From assembly GCF_000196515.1 (NCBI RefSeq), contig NC_014248.1, positions 4,034,001 through 4,098,000 of the forward strand: 64,000 bases of DNA. Reading direction: 5' to 3'. This document shows, piece after piece, positions 7,628 through 41,797 of the stretch. Every line of letters starts with the position of its first letter. Within the stretch, counting starts at the first letter, position 1. Below the pieces are notes generated by a model that was not told the origin of the DNA, searched no databases, and worked only from the letters and a program-made list of their open reading frames with translations. The translations under genes and the position numbers were made by a program. Source of the DNA: 'Nostoc azollae' 0708. Its GTDB lineage: Bacteria; Cyanobacteriota; Cyanobacteriia; Cyanobacteriales; Nostocaceae.

Positions 7628-9433
7628 ATGAATAGTTTGTTTGGTAATTGGGCCAACACCCTGAGAAAAAATTCTCTATTGCTGGTACTTTTAATGCTGC
7701 TGCCAACATTGGGAATTAGTAATTCTGTCATGGCAGCCGAGAAAATCTATGCTTCTTATTCTATACTAGAAATTCCCATTCCCGTGATTAGTTTGGAAAC
7801 TTATGTAAAAACGGGAGTAATTGATGATGAGTTAGCAATTTCTAAACAGTATATTTCATTTAAAAAACTGCAAGAATTACGACAAATTTTACTAAGGTCT
7901 GTAAAAATTAGTCCGGCTATTGCTGCACGATTTCTCCACACCCAACAAGGAGAATTCCTACTGCGACGTCTAGCAGAAGTAATAAAAACTAAATCTTTGG
8001 TACCTGAATCAGAATTCAATGCTTTACGTGATGCGATCATTGCTGCTTCTGGTGAACCGGAAGGCTTGAGTTTATTGAATTTGTTACGGAACTATCCCAG
8101 CAGCACTGTTCATCTTAAGTTAGGTGATAGTTTAGAAATAGCTGGTAAACTAGAACAACTAATTAGTGAAACTGATAAAGCAATCGCAGCAATTCAACAA
8201 TTATCAAATATCGAAGCTGGTAAGATCCGAAATGTAAATCTATCGCCATTGCCAGATTTACAAACTGAAGGAAATTTTCAATCAAATAAGTACACGCTGG
8301 AATTTTTTGACTCTACCCGTAATCGCCGTTTGTTTACAGATGTTTATATTCCTAACGTTCCCCACCCCACACCAGTAATTGTGATTTCTCATGGCTTAGG
8401 TTTAGACAGCAGTAACTTTCGTTATTTAGCTCATCATTTGGCTTCCCGCGGATTAGCTGTTGTCGTTCCTAATCATCCAGTTAGTCAGGATCAACAGCCA
8501 CAAAAGCAATTTTTCATCAAGAGAAATACGCGTAAAGTTATAGAGGCTGGTGAATTTTTAGATCAACCTTTAGATATAAAATACATATTAGATCAACTCC
8601 AAAACTCTAACCAATATGATCCAATTTTTAAAGGTAAATTAAACTTGGAACAGGTGGGAGTATTTGGTCAATCTTTTGGTGGTTACACTGCTCTAGTTTT
8701 AGCAGGTGCAAAGATTAATTTCGAACAGCTAGAACAAGATTGTCAACCAGATGTGCTGCGAGATACCTGGAATATGTCTTTACTGCTGCAATGTCGCGCT
8801 TTAGAATTACAAACGAAGTCCAGACAAAAATATAATTTTAATTTACGGGATGAAAGAGTTAAAGCTGCAATTGCTGTTAATCCCATTACTAGCTCTATTT
8901 TCGGTCAAGTTGGCTTGAATCAAATTCAAACTCCTGTCATGTTTGTTAGTAGCAGTGAAGATACTGTTGCACCAGCTTTATATGAACAAATTTTACCGTT
9001 TTCCTGGTTAACGCATCCCCATAAATATCTGGTTATGCTTGTGGGTGGAACTCATTTTTCTAGTATTGGTAATAGTAATACTGGTAGTCAGCAAGTCCGA
9101 TTACCTACAGATATGATTGGTAATGCTTCCCAAGCGCGTAGTTATATAAATGCGTTTAGCTTGTCGTTTTTCCAAACGTATGTTTCTCAAAAGCCACAAT
9201 ATATTCCCTACCTGAATGCGGGTTACGCTAAAACTATTTCTAGTCAGTTTTTGGGGTTGAGTCTTGTGCAGTCTTTGAATAGTCAAGAATTCGCCTCAGT
9301 ATTAGGTAGTAATATTCAGGAAGTGATCCCCGGGAAAAAAACTTCCTACAACCATAATCAGGTTTGGATTTTGGATTTGAGATATTGGTGTATCCTTGCT
9401 TCATGTCATGATTTTTTTGTGATGTATTTTTAA
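7628..9433 (+). CDS. Alpha/beta hydrolase, secreted, DUF1400-type
   Basis: A predicted hydrolase with a signal peptide or anchor (residues 10-37, ending VMAAEKIY). It has a helical N-terminal DUF1400-like domain (about 38-190) found in cyanobacterial alpha/beta hydrolases. The hydrolase domain shows the oxyanion-region motif [14 protein letters not shown], the nucleophile elbow GQSFGGY (Ser about 349) and a late VGGTHFSS histidine. Known relatives are annotated as predicted dienelactone hydrolases or lipases; the substrate is unknown. Oddity: after about residue 565 the tail ([18 protein letters not shown]...) is unlike the rest and derives from repeat-like DNA, so the last ~35 residues probably come from a frameshift or replaced 3' end. 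Confidence 0.8.
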
Positions 9434-35729: not shown

Positions 35730-36300
35730 TTATCTAGTACATACATAAGTAGGATTATCTGCTCGTTCTGCAAATTCCAACCCTTGAGATAAACGCCAAG
35801 CGAGGATTTTTGGTAATCGTTTTTCTATAATTGCTGCACAAGTTTTTTGATAGTCATATTCGACTTCTCTTAATACCACGTTTTGAGTATCAACATCATA
35901 ACTTACATAAGTTGCATTTGCTATACCATGTCGTGGTTCTCCTACCGAACCTACGTTAATAATTCGTTGTAAAGGGTCTGTTAAACAGATGTCTTGGGTG
36001 ACTTTTTCACGATTAACTCGCACCTGTAATTTACCCTCATCAAGGATGCGACTATAAGGAACATGAGTATGTCCGCAAAATAGCACATCTGCAACTGTAG
36101 AAAGCACCCTTTCTACGGTAACAAAGCTATTAATTTGCGGTAATAAATATTCATGGTTACTATGGGGACTACCATAAACAAAGGCTCAATTTCCTAATTT
36201 TAAGTTATAGGGTAATTAGGCTAAAAATTTACGATTTTCCGAATGAATTTCTTGGTTTGTCCATTGGTGGGCTTGGATACCAGGGGAAACGCACCTTATT
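35730..36300 (-). pseudogene. Metallophosphoesterase, copy 2, C-terminal remnant
   Basis: Reads HQWTNQEIHSENRKFLA, stop, LPYNLKLGN, stop, AFVYGSPHSNHEYLLPQ, then an open piece with VADVLFCGHTHVPYSRIL (the GHTH metal-binding motif), IINVGSVGEPRHGIANATYV and YDYQKTCAAIIEKRLP. This is the second half of a YfcE-like phosphoesterase whose N-terminal half is missing. The missing part would have lain towards the ISAs1-type element at 36.5-37.7 kb. The 36301-36550 gap is AT-rich and shows no gene. Confidence 0.8.
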
Positions 36301-36550
36301 TCCTAATAAAAACTAATGAAAATTTTAAAATCACCTATATAAGTGCAAAGCTTAATGGATATATAAACAAAATCAATCACTTTTTTATTAAGCCATGGAT
36401 TAGCTTATCTCCAATTGAATAACTCTTAGCTAAGGATAAATGAGCTAACTATTCATCCATAAATAAGTAAACTTATCTGTAAAAATAAGTAGAAGAAAAT
36501 ATTAAGTAAATTGTTGACAAGTTAGTTGAGGCTAAAGCTAAAACTCTTTC

Positions 36551-37660
36551 TCAAGAGTTATTATCCACTGCTGCCAAAAACTGTTTATTTTTTATCCCCC
36601 GCTTCACGGGGTTCTCTTTACCCAAAAGATCGACTGCTATCTGCCGCATTACTGCAAAGTTTTGTGGAGCATTATCTTTCCTAATCTGGCAGTCATCTTG
36701 TTTTAAAGCTACATCTAATACCCAATGCAATGAATTTTCTATTGCCCAATGGCTGCGGACAGAATTAGCCAATTGTTCTCCATTTGAGTCAAGACTACTA
36801 ATAAAATAACGAGTCTCTACTGTTGTTTTATCATCCACTTGTCCGATAGATTCTACCATCCCAACACTTTTTAGATTTGACCAAACCGAATCAGGGTCAA
36901 GCTGAAACCCAATTCCAGGTAACATCACATAATTGCGGATCTCATGACGACTATGCCATATTGCTTCGGGTTTATATGTGCTATGTTGAAGCTCTTAAAA
37001 ACCTGTACTTATCCCTGACTTAAATAGCTGTTCTACTGACTCATACAGATTACCTTGGTTCTTTTTTAAAGTGATTACATAATCTGCATTTTCTTGCGTA
37101 ATTAACTTTACTATGTCTTTGTGACACCCGATGGCATCAATCCTGACAATACATCCAGCTAATTCTAAAACCTTTAATAATTCGGGAATTGCTGTAATTT
37201 CATGTGACTTCTCATGCACCTTCACCTGTCCCAACACTAATCTATTTGTAGTTGCCCATACACTTACCATTTGGATTGCACTCTAGTCACTATTTTTACC
37301 ATGAGAACTACATAAAGTTTTCCCGTCAATTGCCACAACTTCACCATCCCTTATCTTATGTACTGATTTGATCCAGTTCAAGAAACAATTTTGAAATTTT
37401 TGCGGATTCAATTGTGCAAATACCCTTCCAAATGTGTCCTGGGACCGGAGCCCATTTCCTAGTTCTAAAAAGGTTTTTAACCACTTATATTTTGTGCAGC
37501 CATACAGTTCAATTGCCACCCAACTATCTGCTTCACAAATTACTGCACAAATTCCAATGGTAAGAATGTCAATTAACTTGTGTCGTTTCCTCCCCTCTAC
37601 TCTTGGATCTTCCATCTGTGCAAGGTGGTCATTAATCGTGATTTTGGGCTTGAGCTTCAC
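36551..37660 (-). pseudogene. ISAs1-family transposase with two nonsense codons
   Basis: A near-complete transposase: DHLAQMEDPRVEGRKRHKLI, GICAVICEADSWVAIELYG, LRSQDTFGRVFAQLNP, GEVVAIDGKTLCSSHGKNSD, then TAG (37283-37285), SAIQMVSVWATTNRLVLGQV, VRIDAIGCHKDIVKLI, YVITLKKNQGNLYESV, a TAA (about 36995), RYFISSLDSNGEQLANSVRS and HWAIENSLHWVLDVALKQDD. The reading frame is unchanged across both stops, so only two point mutations separate it from an open gene. It lies at the truncated end of the squalene-hopene cyclase pseudogene and probably caused that truncation. Confidence 0.9.
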
Positions 37661-38861
37661 ACTTTTTGGGACTTTCTTCTTCTACTTTTACAATGACTTT
37701 ACCATCAGAGCCTCATTGGTCAACCTCCATATCATCAGCCCTCCCTACCTTTCTGATTTCTTAGTATATATGTACTATATCTACATGCGTTCGCCCTGAA
37801 GTGGTGGGGTATTTTTGTGGATTGATTAAAGCTGAAGCTGATAAAACACCGCTAGTTCCATAGATGTAATTTACACGGCAACGTCCAAACCAATAACCTT
37901 CTATTTCTTGTTCATTAAGAAGATAATCAAGGGATTTTTCTAAGTTATCTGGTTGAATTGATAAGTTACAAGCCCCCAACATTCCTAATACTCTAGCGGT
38001 GACATCAGCTGTGTTAGGATCAATCATGGCTTTTAAATCACCATAGGGTACAGAATTGAGCCAATCTTGATTATTATCAACATCAAAAGCTGCCCACCCT
38101 CCTGGTTGACATTGCATTGATGCAATCCAGTTGAGGGCCAGATTCATTACTTGTTTTTTTAGTGTTTGATTGGGTCATTGTACGTGATCTAAAGCCATGA
38201 CAACTACGGCAGAATCATCAACGTCGGGATAAAAGCAGTTGTCAAATTCAAACGCCTAAGCGCCGGGTTTTCCCTGGTGATTTTTTACAGACCAATCCCC
38301 ATAATCGAGGATTTGTTTGTCTATTAAGCATTCTCCAGCTTTGACTATTTTGAGATGATCTGGTGCTAAACCTGAATCAATTAAGGAGCGAATTGCCCAA
38401 GTTGTATCCCACACGGGAGAAACACAAGGTTGGACACAGTAACTCTTTTCTGTTTCAATCGTAACATTATCAACTGCTTTTAAAGCACCATATATAATTG
38501 GGTCGTTAGCATCGTAATCTAAACACTTTAAGGATAATAGAGAATTTAACATGGCGGCAATAATTCCCTCCCAGTTACCGGTGGCTTCTTGCCGTTCTAA
38601 AATCCACTTTTCTCCGGCTTTAATTCCTTCGTTTCTAAAAGGTATGAAGTTTAACACCTCTGCTATTTTAAACCCATTATCAAAGATGTTGAATATATAT
38701 GACAAATCACCATTTTTTGGTAATTCCCATTTGACGTTATTCACACCTTCTAGATATAGTTCATCTAAATTTATGGGTTGTTGAATTTCAAAGATTGGTT
38801 TACGATCAAAGACGATTAATAATGGAACTGTGCTAGAACGCGCCCAGCTATAGGACTAGTA

Positions 38862-39979
38862 TTTGATTTATGAAAATGCTCCGTACATCTGGAGAGATGG
38901 AAAATCAAAGGTAGTGTTTTGAATGAACCACTCAAACATCCACTTAAGATGAGAAAATGTTGGGATTAAAGCACAAAAACGTCGCAGCCAAGTTTTCCCT
39001 TGCAACCAAACATCTTCTATGGGGTTTTGAGAGGGACAGTTAGAAGCAAAGCGGACGCAATAAATTTTCCATTGCTCTAAAGGTAAACCTTGGTTAATAG
39101 ATGCTAAAGGATTTTGAATTTCTTTTGAACGATGATAACTAGCTCCATCCCAAAAAATAAGCAATTGTTGGTTAGGTGACTCTTCTAGTAAATAGCTGAG
39201 ATAATCAATAGTATTTTTTGAGTTAGCTGTATCATAGGTTTTCAGCAATAAATTTTTACCTAAATAGTCAACTGCTCCATAATAAGTTTGTTTATCTCGT
39301 TCGTTACTAATACTAATTGGAATGCTTATTTCTTGGTCAGTTCTACCCCAAACATATCCAATACTATCTCCCCAAAGTAAATGACACTCATCTAATAGCA
39401 AAACTCTCAATAGCCCAGCTTCTATATCTTCTCGGCAGGTCGCCAACAATGATGAAATCTCTTTTTTTTGCGGCAACTGCTTCTTCATTAGCTTTTGGAT
39501 TTCCTGAAGATGTTTTCTTCTAACTAATTCCTGCCGCATCAAACAAGTCATAATAACTACGTTTTGATTCATAAAGTACATCATATTCAAAAGCCAATTT
39601 ATACTCAATTTCGCCAAGCTTCCAACATTCCTTCGTTTGTAACCAAGCCAGTACTTCTTCTCTTTGTTGAGTATTCAAGTGGCTTTTTCTCCCTTTGTGT
39701 TTCAGGCGCAGTCCTAAAATTCTATCTTTCTCATAGGCTTGTTTCCATGTTGTTATTGAACCAACTGAAACATCTAAAATTGTTTGAATTTCCTCATACT
39801 TGTAGCTTTGATAAACCAGCTTCACTGCCAATGCTTTTCTTACTTCCCTTGCATCTGGACGCTCATCTATAAATTCTTGTAGTTCTGCAATTTTAGATTG
39901 TAGCTCCTGGTTGATGATTGTTAGCTATTAGACAAGACACTTTCTCGGTATTATCTCTTAGTCTTTTTCAAAAATCAAA
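38862..39979 (-). mobile_element. IS630-family element in shc, flanked by TA
   Basis: The ends TTTGATTTATGAAAA (38862 onward) and, reverse complemented, TTTGATTTTTGAAAA (39979 backward) are inverted repeats. A TA dinucleotide flanks each side (38860-38861 and 39980-39981), which is the known IS630 target duplication. The element is 1,118 bp and divides the squalene-hopene cyclase gene. Confidence 0.88.
38868..39831 (-). pseudogene. IS630 transposase, ORF A/ORF B, with one nonsense codon
   Basis: Upstream frame (39831-39520): helix-turn-helix domain YKYEEIQTILDVSVGSITTW, KGRKSHLNTQQREEVLAW, YYDLFDAAGIS and a TAG. Beyond the TAG the same frame continues KKTSSGNPKANEEAVAA to a run of eight A. 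There, a shift enters the second frame, KKEISSLLATCREDIEAGLL then LLLDECHLLWGDSIGYVWGR (first Asp), LLIFWDGASYHRSKEIQ and SQNPIEDVWLQGKTWLRRF (final Glu). The DDE triad is intact. If the A-run allows programmed frameshifting, as in some IS630 elements, a single TAG is the only lesion. Confidence 0.85.
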
Positions 39980-40614
39980 TATGATTTCTATAGCAAGTTC
40001 ATAAATATTGAAGGGGAAACTATTGGGTAGTAGTAGCATTACCTAAGGTGGTAATGATGGTAAACCGCGCCAATGGTAGCAACCAATTAAGGCCAGATGT
40101 AATTTGGTGAAAATGCGTGTTTTGCTAATTCCACCTTTTTCAAGTATCAAAGTTTTAGCGCGAATTAGGGGGGGATCTGTGGTGGGTACACCTAATAACC
40201 GCAGGCCATTTAGGCTTCTACAGTTATTAGGTGTACCCAGCATCTCCGTAGAATAGTTCCCAGGCCACATGTTCTCGTTGTTGCGATGGCAGATAGGTTT
40301 CAACTTTATGCAAAGGTCGAGTTTTATCTGTTCCCCAAGTTTTATGTAGCAGTACAGCTTCGGACGTGATGGTGACATTAGATTCTAATTCTCCCCACCA
40401 GTAACCATCTGGTTTTTGAATTGACAACAGATGTTGTTGACTAACTGCAATCGCTTCTGTAATTTGCTTGACTTTGCCCCTATCTTATGTTTTCATAAAT
40501 TATTTACCTCAGCACCAAATAATAATTAAGAACATAACCGTGGGTAGAGGATATTCTTCCCCAAAATTAACACACAATGTCTTTTGTCTGAGTTAGTGAG
40601 AATTTGCAAGCGTT

Positions 40615-41797
40615 ATGGTAGGAACTTTGTTGGGGTTGATAGTTTTATCTTTAGCAATATGGTTATTTTTACTCTTGTTTTGGGGGCAGTTTTGGCGGGT
40701 AGATCAGCAGTTAGGAACCAATAAAGACGTTGTATACAAACCCTCTACAAAACAATCACTACCTACTGTGTGTGTGGTAGTTCCAGCGCGGAATGAAGTT
40801 GAGTCATCCCCATTACTTTACTTTGTGATCGCTTCTTCTCCAAGAGTATCCTGGTAATTTCCAAGTCTTTTTGGTGGATGATCAAAGTACAGATGGTACA
40901 GCAAATTTTCCCGAGGGAGTACCTTACGCAGTAGACAAACTGCCACAATTACATATAGTCTCTAGTGTAGATTTGCCTGCTACTTGGACTGGTAAACTTT
41001 GGGCAATGGAACAAGGTGTACAAAAAGCCAGTCAATTACAACCCGATTATTTTTTACTTACCGATACAGATATAGAACATGATATTAGTAATCTGCGCCG
41101 ATTAATTGGCAAAGCTGAAAAAGAGAATTTAGATTTAGTATCTATCATCGTCCGACTGCGTTGTCAAAGTTTTTAGTAACAATTATTGATGCCTACTTTT
41201 GTCTTTTTCTTCCAAAAACTCTACCCTTTTCACTGGGTAAATAACTCCAAAAAAGCCACTGCCGCAGCCGCTGGTGGTTGTATTTTAATTCGGCGCGAAA
41301 CTCTCAACAATATTGGTGGACTGCAAGTTATTCGCCAAGCTTTAATTGATGATTGTTCTTTAGCAAAAGCCGTTAAATCTAATCAAGGAAAAATTTGGTT
41401 AGGATTAAGTGCGTTAACTTATAGTTTGCGTCCTTACAATTCCTTAGATTCTATCTGCAATATGGTAGCCCATAGTACCTACATACAACTCAATTATTCA
41501 CCCTTGTTATTAACAGGTAGCGTGTTAAAAATGACCTTAGTTTATATAATACCAGTCATGGGAATTATCTTGGGTTTAGTATTAGGAAATTTGCTAATGA
41601 CTCTCACGTGTTTATTAACCTAGCTATTAATGACATTTGCATATTTTTCCATCATCCGTTTTTACAAATGCAGCCCTTGGTTAGCATTTCATTTACGCAT
41701 CATTGCCTTTCTCTATACCTTGATGACTTTAGACTCTGCTAACCGTCATTGGCAAGGAAGGGGAGGACCTTGCAAGGGTAGAGTTTATCAAAACTAG
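40615..41797 (+). pseudogene. hpnB: Hopene-associated glycosyltransferase HpnB-type, broken
   Basis: A family 2 glycosyltransferase with an N-terminal membrane helix (MVGTLLGLIVLSLAIWLFLL), VCVVVPARNEV, then a frame change, YPGNFQVFLVDDQSTDGTAN, TWTGKLWAMEQGVQKASQL, YFLLTDTDIEHD (DxD motif), a second shift, AGGCILIRRETLNNIGGLQV, and DDCSLAKAVKSN. The C-terminal helices follow, with SANRHWQGRGGP and a TAG at 41795-41797. The start region, 118 bp from divergent shc, and the sequence type match HpnB of hopanoid loci. At least three frame disruptions (near 40830, 41150 and 41623). Confidence 0.85.

What the first reader, a model, noticed from the sequence alone, without database searches (positions are those of the whole stretch)
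37765..41797. Hopanoid locus dismantled: shc and hpnB both dead
Divergent squalene-hopene cyclase and HpnB-type glycosyltransferase genes have independent lesions (IS630 insertion, 3' truncation next to ISAs1, stops, frameshifts). Unless other copies exist, the organism cannot make hopanoids. That is notable because hopanoids are widespread in Nostocales and linked to membrane stress tolerance; loss fits a protected symbiotic life.
Basis: partly seen in the sequence, partly recalled or inferred. Interest (0 to 1): 0.7.

Follow-up and report, generated by a model that had tools for sequence, protein, structure and literature searches.

The report
Hopanoid pathway lost in fern symbiont
The cyanobacterium that lives inside the water fern Azolla has broken or lost the genes for making hopanoids, the sterol-like lipids of many bacterial membranes, so a nitrogen-fixing plant partner seems to manage without a lipid thought important in such partnerships.

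Summary
The only shc found is this broken one: stops, frameshifts, an IS630 with doubled TA, and a lost 3' end beside a decayed ISAs1. hpnB is dead too. Elsewhere squalene synthase is absent, hpnH is truncated, and hpnA and an hpnG-like gene carry stops. A second Trichormus genome (G213) is defective at the same genes and shares the hpnH break, the sqs loss and stops in shc, hpnA and the hpnG-like gene. Between the two, five remnants evolve neutrally (dN/dS 1.12; six intact ORFs 0.23), so the pathway was dead by their common ancestor. Inability to make hopanoids is well supported. The link to symbiosis is only plausible: 32 of 217 Nostocaceae genomes have no shc match, nor a second squalene/phytoene synthase, nor hpnH, and some are as large as 9.5 Mb. 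The Azolla nuclear genome carries its own shc, nested among cyanobacterial ones (PMC6786969, passages), so host compensation is testable but unproven.

The parts
39991..40496 (-). shc pseudogene, 5' part (codons 1 to about 175 of the intact homologue)
   Evidence: tblastn and MAFFT against A. catenula shc; stops Q4, Y103, W159 and two -1 frameshifts
38851..39990 (-). IS630-family insertion in shc, transposase itself split (ORFs 38868-39617 and 39520-39831)
   Evidence: NF033545 and PF13358 hits on 38868-39617; inverted arms 38847-38876 and 39965-39994; TA doubled relative to the empty site in G213
37810..38850 (-). shc pseudogene, middle part (about codons 175-522); stops W373, L400; 3' end missing
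   Evidence: TIGR01507 172-516 of 640; no 516-640 match in the genome at E<=1; DNA match ends at 37810; alignment
36281..37798 (-). decayed ISAs1-family element beside the truncated shc
   Evidence: NF033564 fragments; end beginning CAGGG at 37798; far boundary from repeated matches starting at 36281
40615..41797 (+). hpnB pseudogene (hopene-associated glycosyltransferase)
   Evidence: TIGR03469 fragments; two frameshifts and four stops

Best explanation
This is the wreck of the hopanoid biosynthesis pathway in the Azolla cyanobiont. The pathway lost its selective value in, or shortly before, the last common ancestor of the two sampled symbiont-type genomes. Shown: squalene synthase is gone and hpnH is truncated at one shared junction in both; nonsense codons in shc, hpnA and the hpnG-like gene are shared; five remnants have since evolved at the neutral rate; each lineage added its own lesions (in this genome an IS630 insertion, shc 3' loss beside an ISAs1, and hpnB stops). 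Inferred: the cell makes no squalene, hopene or extended hopanoids, and its vegetative cells, heterocysts and akinetes work with other membrane lipids. Also inferred: the cause is relaxed selection in a small, clonally transmitted population, not an active advantage of loss.
For: At E<=1, a lax threshold at which 6 of 14 control genomes also ring, the only shc matches in the genome are the three pieces of this locus. A single PF00494 member, crtB; no sqs by DNA and, by protein at E<=10, only weak matches inside crtB in both genomes, against 1.8e-194 in A. lutea. HpnH positions 1-131 of 318 only, cut at the same point with the same downstream DNA in G213; this copy reads CNLDYTGC where the intact protein reads CNLACTGC. 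Shared stops: shc Q4 and Y103, hpnA Q157, hpnG-like H104. G000-G213 dN/dS: shc 0.94, hpnB 0.90, hpnA 1.94, hpnG-like 1.17, hpnH 1.11; pooled 1.12 over 1389 codons, against 0.23 for six intact ORFs (2218 codons) at similar dS (0.059 and 0.062); Fisher p 8e-13 on rounded counts. Against A. catenula the remnants show dN/dS 0.12-0.23, so selection was lost late. In 217 Nostocaceae genomes all 182 with two or more PF00494 members have an shc match; of the 35 with one, 32 have none and three (G000, G213, G210) have weaker, partial-strength ones (compared by hand).
Against: No lipid data. hpnB shares no stop with G213, so its first lesion could postdate the split (its dN/dS is still 0.90). The hpnH fragment here is an open frame of 157 aa. 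shc Q4 lies so close to the start that a downstream start could bypass it, and Y103 lies beyond a private frameshift here. The hpnG-like gene is only 60% identical to A. catenula's, so strict orthology is unsure, and its one intact pair gave dN/dS 0.64. The G213 host is stated in no record I saw. Six control ORFs and two for the deeper comparison are small sets.
Confidence: 0.93

Rival explanations
1. The pathway was lost for reasons unrelated to symbiosis. Hopanoid loss is recurrent in Nostocaceae, and the cyanobiont lineage is one more instance that happens to be caught mid-decay.
For: 32 of 217 family genomes have no shc match, plus three with weak remnants and one PF00494 member; 9 of 56 genera have no match at all; genera g18, g40 and g54 contain both states. 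Genomes without shc reach 9.5 Mb with 100% completeness.
Against: The remnants were under selection until close to the split of the two genomes, and the closest named cultured relatives found keep it: A. catenula has sqs, hpnH, hpnA, hpnG-like, hpnB and shc, and A. lutea has sqs, hpnG-like, hpnB and shc. This places the loss near the symbiotic transition.
Confidence: 0.35
2. Host substitution: the fern's own SHC product (hopene or diplopterol) reaches the cyanobiont membrane and made the bacterial pathway redundant.
For: The Azolla nuclear genome carries an SHC nested among cyanobacterial sequences, shared with other ferns; SHC triterpenes were found in Salvinia (PMC6786969, passages read). 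The cyanobiont pathway is dead.
Against: No evidence of lipid transfer. Triterpenes were reported for Salvinia, not Azolla, in the passages I read. Other Nostocaceae lack the pathway too; I do not know their lifestyles.
Confidence: 0.12
3. Residual or alternative hopanoid synthesis: a truncated SHC, readthrough, or another cyclase keeps a little hopene production.
For: Some sub-ORFs are long (162 aa shc, 157 aa hpnH).
Against: No squalene synthase, so no substrate; dN/dS of about 1 or more for each of the five remnants; no other cyclase match at E<=1.
Confidence: 0.03
4. Sequencing or assembly artefact.
For: None found; IS elements can cause misassembly.
Against: A separate assembly (G213) shows shared lesions plus its own further decay; the window lies in a 3-contig assembly of 99.99% completeness.
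Confidence: 0.01

Closest known systems
Genome erosion of 'Nostoc azollae' 0708 (Ran et al. 2010, PMC2900214; passages read)
   Same: Same genome size; 31.2% pseudogenes and about 600 insertion-sequence sites
   Different: 'squalene', 'hopan' and 'terpen' have 0 occurrences in its main text, so the pathway-wide loss is not described there under those words; supplements not seen
Intact Nostocaceae hopanoid genes (Anabaena catenula FACHB-362, A. lutea FACHB-196)
   Same: Divergent shc and hpnB, with an hpnG-like gene beyond hpnB; hpnA and hpnH nearby and sqs on the same contig in A. catenula
   Different: There the genes are open; in the cyanobiont they are dead or absent and scattered over the chromosome
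Pathway absence in other Nostocaceae (32 of 217 genomes)
   Same: shc, second PF00494 member and hpnH all without a match
   Different: In those 32 no shc match remains at E<=1e-5; in N. azollae and G213 the decay is caught in progress
Hopanoid requirement in Bradyrhizobium-legume symbiosis (PMC11005386, passages read)
   Same: Nitrogen-fixing plant symbiont
   Different: There loss of hopanoids inhibits or abolishes symbiosis; here an obligate symbiont has lost the genes

Membership tests
Functional squalene-hopene cyclase (TIGR01507) | Full-length open reading frame, about 640 aa | tested here: not met
   Pieces cover 14-516 of 640; stops, frameshifts, IS630; no 3' end found in the genome
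Functional squalene-hopene cyclase (TIGR01507) | Catalytic DXDD motif (recalled) | tested here: inconclusive
   DNA for DVDD survives just downstream of the W373 stop in this genome; that stretch is missing in G213
Functional squalene-hopene cyclase (TIGR01507) | Purifying selection | tested here: not met
   dN/dS 0.94 between the two genomes, against 0.07 and 0.09 in two pairs of intact homologues
Hopene-associated glycosyltransferase HpnB (TIGR03469) | Intact frame over the 379-bit cut-off | tested here: not met
   Four fragments, two frameshifts, four stops
Complete hopanoid pathway | Squalene synthase (PF00494 member other than crtB; PF00494 also covers HpnC and HpnD, recalled) | tested here: not met
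   Only crtB found
Complete hopanoid pathway | Adenosyl-hopene transferase HpnH | tested here: not met
   131 of 318 positions, shared truncation
Complete hopanoid pathway | Hopanoids in the lipid extract | not testable with these tools
   Needs GC-MS or LC-MS
IS630 family | DDE_3 transposase, terminal inverted repeats, TA target duplication (the last recalled as a family mark) | tested here: met
   the NF033545 score of the larger fragment, 87.2, is under its cut-off of 100 because the frame is broken

The most novel reading that the evidence does not exclude
The fern took over the job. Azolla carries a cyanobacteria-derived squalene-hopene cyclase in its nucleus, and its obligate cyanobacterial partner has lost the whole pathway; fern-made hopene or diplopterol could now serve the symbiont's membranes, a lipid dependence of an extracellular nitrogen-fixing symbiont on a host enzyme that itself came from cyanobacteria.
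Probability: 0.1. Interest if true: 0.85.

Novelty: new member of a known kind. Interest (0 to 1): 0.5.

Why it matters
Hopanoids are linked to nitrogenase-bearing vesicles of Frankia, to Nostoc akinetes (both recalled, with titles seen in a reference list) and to Bradyrhizobium symbiosis. N. azollae fixes nitrogen in heterocysts, forms akinetes and is inherited through the host's spores (partly recalled), yet every pathway gene tested here is dead or absent. If lipid analysis agrees, hopanoids are dispensable for all three, and hopanes in Azolla-bearing sediments could not be assigned to the cyanobiont. The close co-loss of sqs, shc and hpnH across 217 Nostocaceae genomes also offers a natural experiment on what hopanoids are for.

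Tried and rejected
A second shc elsewhere in the genome: not found. A moved or degraded squalene synthase: in both genomes DNA similarity to the A. lutea sqs locus stops about 60 bases from the 3' end of sqs, and no match covers the gene. Function of the open hpnH fragment: rejected on dN/dS 1.11 and the shared truncation. hpnA looked intact at DNA level (87% identity) but has two stops here and three in G213. A second weak HpnH match in the genome (E 0.0027) is noise: all 14 control genomes ring at that threshold.

I first read the ISAs1 junctions in G000 and G213 as independent insertions. The G213 shc 3' end (from nt 1584) survives on contig C452 joined to ISAs1 interior, only about 20 nt from where G000 is cut, so a shared ancestral insertion with later deletions is possible. 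Contig breaks leave this open, and I count the ISAs1 as neither shared nor independent.

The host of G213 (MAG ERR2144891) could not be confirmed. Literature searches used; none of the listings or passages I saw describes hopanoid gene loss in N. azollae. The library lacks most subscription papers, and supplements were not read. No structure prediction was run.

Full report
What was checked. The window is bases 4034001-4098000 of a 5,354,700-base contig in a genome of 5,486,145 bases, the size published for 'Nostoc azollae' 0708 (PMC2900214, passages read). The reported shc and hpnB remnants are there. Minus-strand pieces match squalene-hopene cyclase (TIGR01507 and both Pfam SQHop domains) and plus-strand pieces match HpnB (TIGR03469).

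Anatomy of the damage. Intact homologues came from Anabaena catenula FACHB-362, A. lutea FACHB-196 and Cylindrospermum sp. FACHB-282. In the frame of A. catenula the shc remnant has five stops (Q4, Y103, W159, W373, L400), two single-base deletions, an IS630 element near codon 175, and nothing after about codon 522. The IS630 has 30-nt inverted arms that include the flanking TA; the TA is single in the second genome, G213, which lacks the element. The shc DNA match ends at 37810, 11 bases before the CAGGG end of a decayed ISAs1 element. hpnB has two frameshifts and four stops.

The rest of the pathway. The whole-genome search finds no other cyclase at E<=1, a threshold at which 6 of 14 control genomes also ring. 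Only one member of the squalene/phytoene synthase family is present, crtB; A. lutea, A. catenula and Cylindrospermum have two each. DNA from the A. lutea sqs locus finds the sqs neighbours in N. azollae and G213 but no sqs; similarity stops about 60 bases from its 3' end in both. The A. lutea SQS protein finds only weak matches inside crtB in both genomes (E 0.85 and up), against 1.8e-194 in its own genome. HpnH is reduced to its first 130 residues. In A. catenula the neighbours of shc and hpnB include an HpnA (TIGR03466, over its cut-off), an HpnG-like phosphorylase (TIGR03468, 91.8 bits, below its cut-off of 187.1) and an RND transporter. In N. azollae hpnA has stops at K144 and Q157, and the hpnG-like gene has stops at H104, L111 and S221. 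At 60% protein identity the hpnG-like gene may not be a strict orthologue. The RND gene is in pieces too; I do not claim it belongs to the pathway.

A second genome. G213 is of the same genus by the tool's grouping. Its contig C74 has the length and match of a MAG contig titled uncultured Trichormus sp. ERR2144891_bin.1. Its hopanoid genes are defective as well. Shared with N. azollae: the hpnH break and the DNA downstream of it, the absence of sqs, and stops at shc Q4, shc Y103 (TAA in one, TAG in the other), hpnA Q157 and hpnG-like H104. Private to G213: shc Q27, R77 and L280; hpnA W58 and Q130; hpnB L11, Q70, Q105 and Q242; hpnH E33, Q49 and E91. Private to N. azollae: the IS630 and other stops. 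hpnB shares no stop, only in-frame indels. I could not confirm the host of G213.

Neutral decay. Between the two genomes dN/dS is 0.94 (shc), 0.90 (hpnB), 1.94 (hpnA), 1.17 (hpnG-like) and 1.11 (hpnH); pooled 1.12 over 1389 codons, with gapped codons and stop codons dropped. Six intact ORFs found by rule in three paired regions give 0.23 over 2218 codons, at similar dS (0.059 and 0.062). Fisher's test on rounded substitution counts gives p 8e-13. Compared with A. catenula the remnants have dN/dS 0.12-0.23. Intact comparisons for scale: shc 0.07 and 0.09, hpnB 0.12, two control ORFs against this genome 0.10 and 0.17; one outlier, hpnG-like between A. catenula and A. lutea, 0.64 at very low dS. 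So selection was lost late. By inference the pathway died near, and probably slightly before, the split of the two genomes.

Family survey. In 217 Nostocaceae genomes, 185 have an shc match at E<=1e-5 and 181 are over the cut-off (G213 is by arithmetic among the 181). All 182 genomes with two or more PF00494 members have an shc match. Of the 35 with one, 32 have none, and three (G000, G213, G210) have matches far weaker than intact copies. I compared the tables by hand; 12 of the 32 are not listed and were identified as the handles missing from its rows. Fisher p is 3e-35, with relatedness of genomes ignored. None of the 32 has an HpnH match at E<=1e-20 (again by absence from the rows). Against a perfect picture, seven genomes with an shc match lack HpnH: G210; G030 and G191, whose shc matches are weak; G081, 54% complete; G148, 85%; G180, 94%; and G178, 99%. 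Of the 206 genomes at least 90% complete and at most 5% contaminated, 26 have no match; with G000, G213 and G210 that makes 29 without a full shc in this sense. So pathway loss is recurrent and not confined to small genomes.

Interpretation. The organism almost certainly makes no hopanoids. That fits a sheltered symbiont but does not prove symbiosis as the cause. It contrasts with Bradyrhizobium, where hopanoid loss inhibits or abolishes legume symbiosis (PMC11005386, passages read). A striking coincidence is that the Azolla nuclear genome carries an SHC nested among cyanobacterial sequences and shared with other ferns, while the authors report no evidence of Nostoc-to-Azolla transfer (PMC6786969, passages read). 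Those passages do not mention the cyanobiont's own shc. Host substitution is therefore possible and testable, but without direct evidence.

Print status. Under the searches, and term searches in the main texts of PMC2900214, PMC12376041 and PMC12362246 ('squalene', 'hopan', 'terpen': 0 occurrences each), I found no report of hopanoid pathway loss in N. azollae. General pseudogenization in this symbiont is well described in the first two. PMC4390852 states that some but not all cyanobacteria possess sqs (passages read). Supplementary tables were not seen.

Noticed in passing
G213 contig C452 (L130) 8723-9061: The 3' end of shc survives in G213 fused to the interior of an ISAs1 transposase, about 20 nt from where shc is cut in N. 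azollae; possibly one ancestral insertion with nested deletions.
   Followed up: partly
G030 and G191 (family survey): Two Nostocaceae genomes have a weak shc match (E 4.8e-85 and 1.1e-88) and three and two PF00494 members but no HpnH; perhaps a different triterpene cyclase.
   Followed up: no
G178 (3.8 Mb, 99% complete): Full-strength shc match and two PF00494 members but no HpnH match; might make hopene but no extended hopanoids.
   Followed up: no
G210 (g54): Weak shc match (6.7e-49), one PF00494 member and no HpnH in a 7.2 Mb genome: perhaps another loss caught in progress.
   Followed up: no
window 35730-36107, minus strand: A short ORF just beyond the ISAs1 with a weak calcineurin-like phosphoesterase match, below the Pfam cut-off; perhaps another broken gene.
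   Followed up: no
G000:C1:4349255-4351595 (L117): The RND transporter that lies near the hpnG-like gene in A. catenula is also a multi-lesion pseudogene in both genomes.
   Followed up: partly
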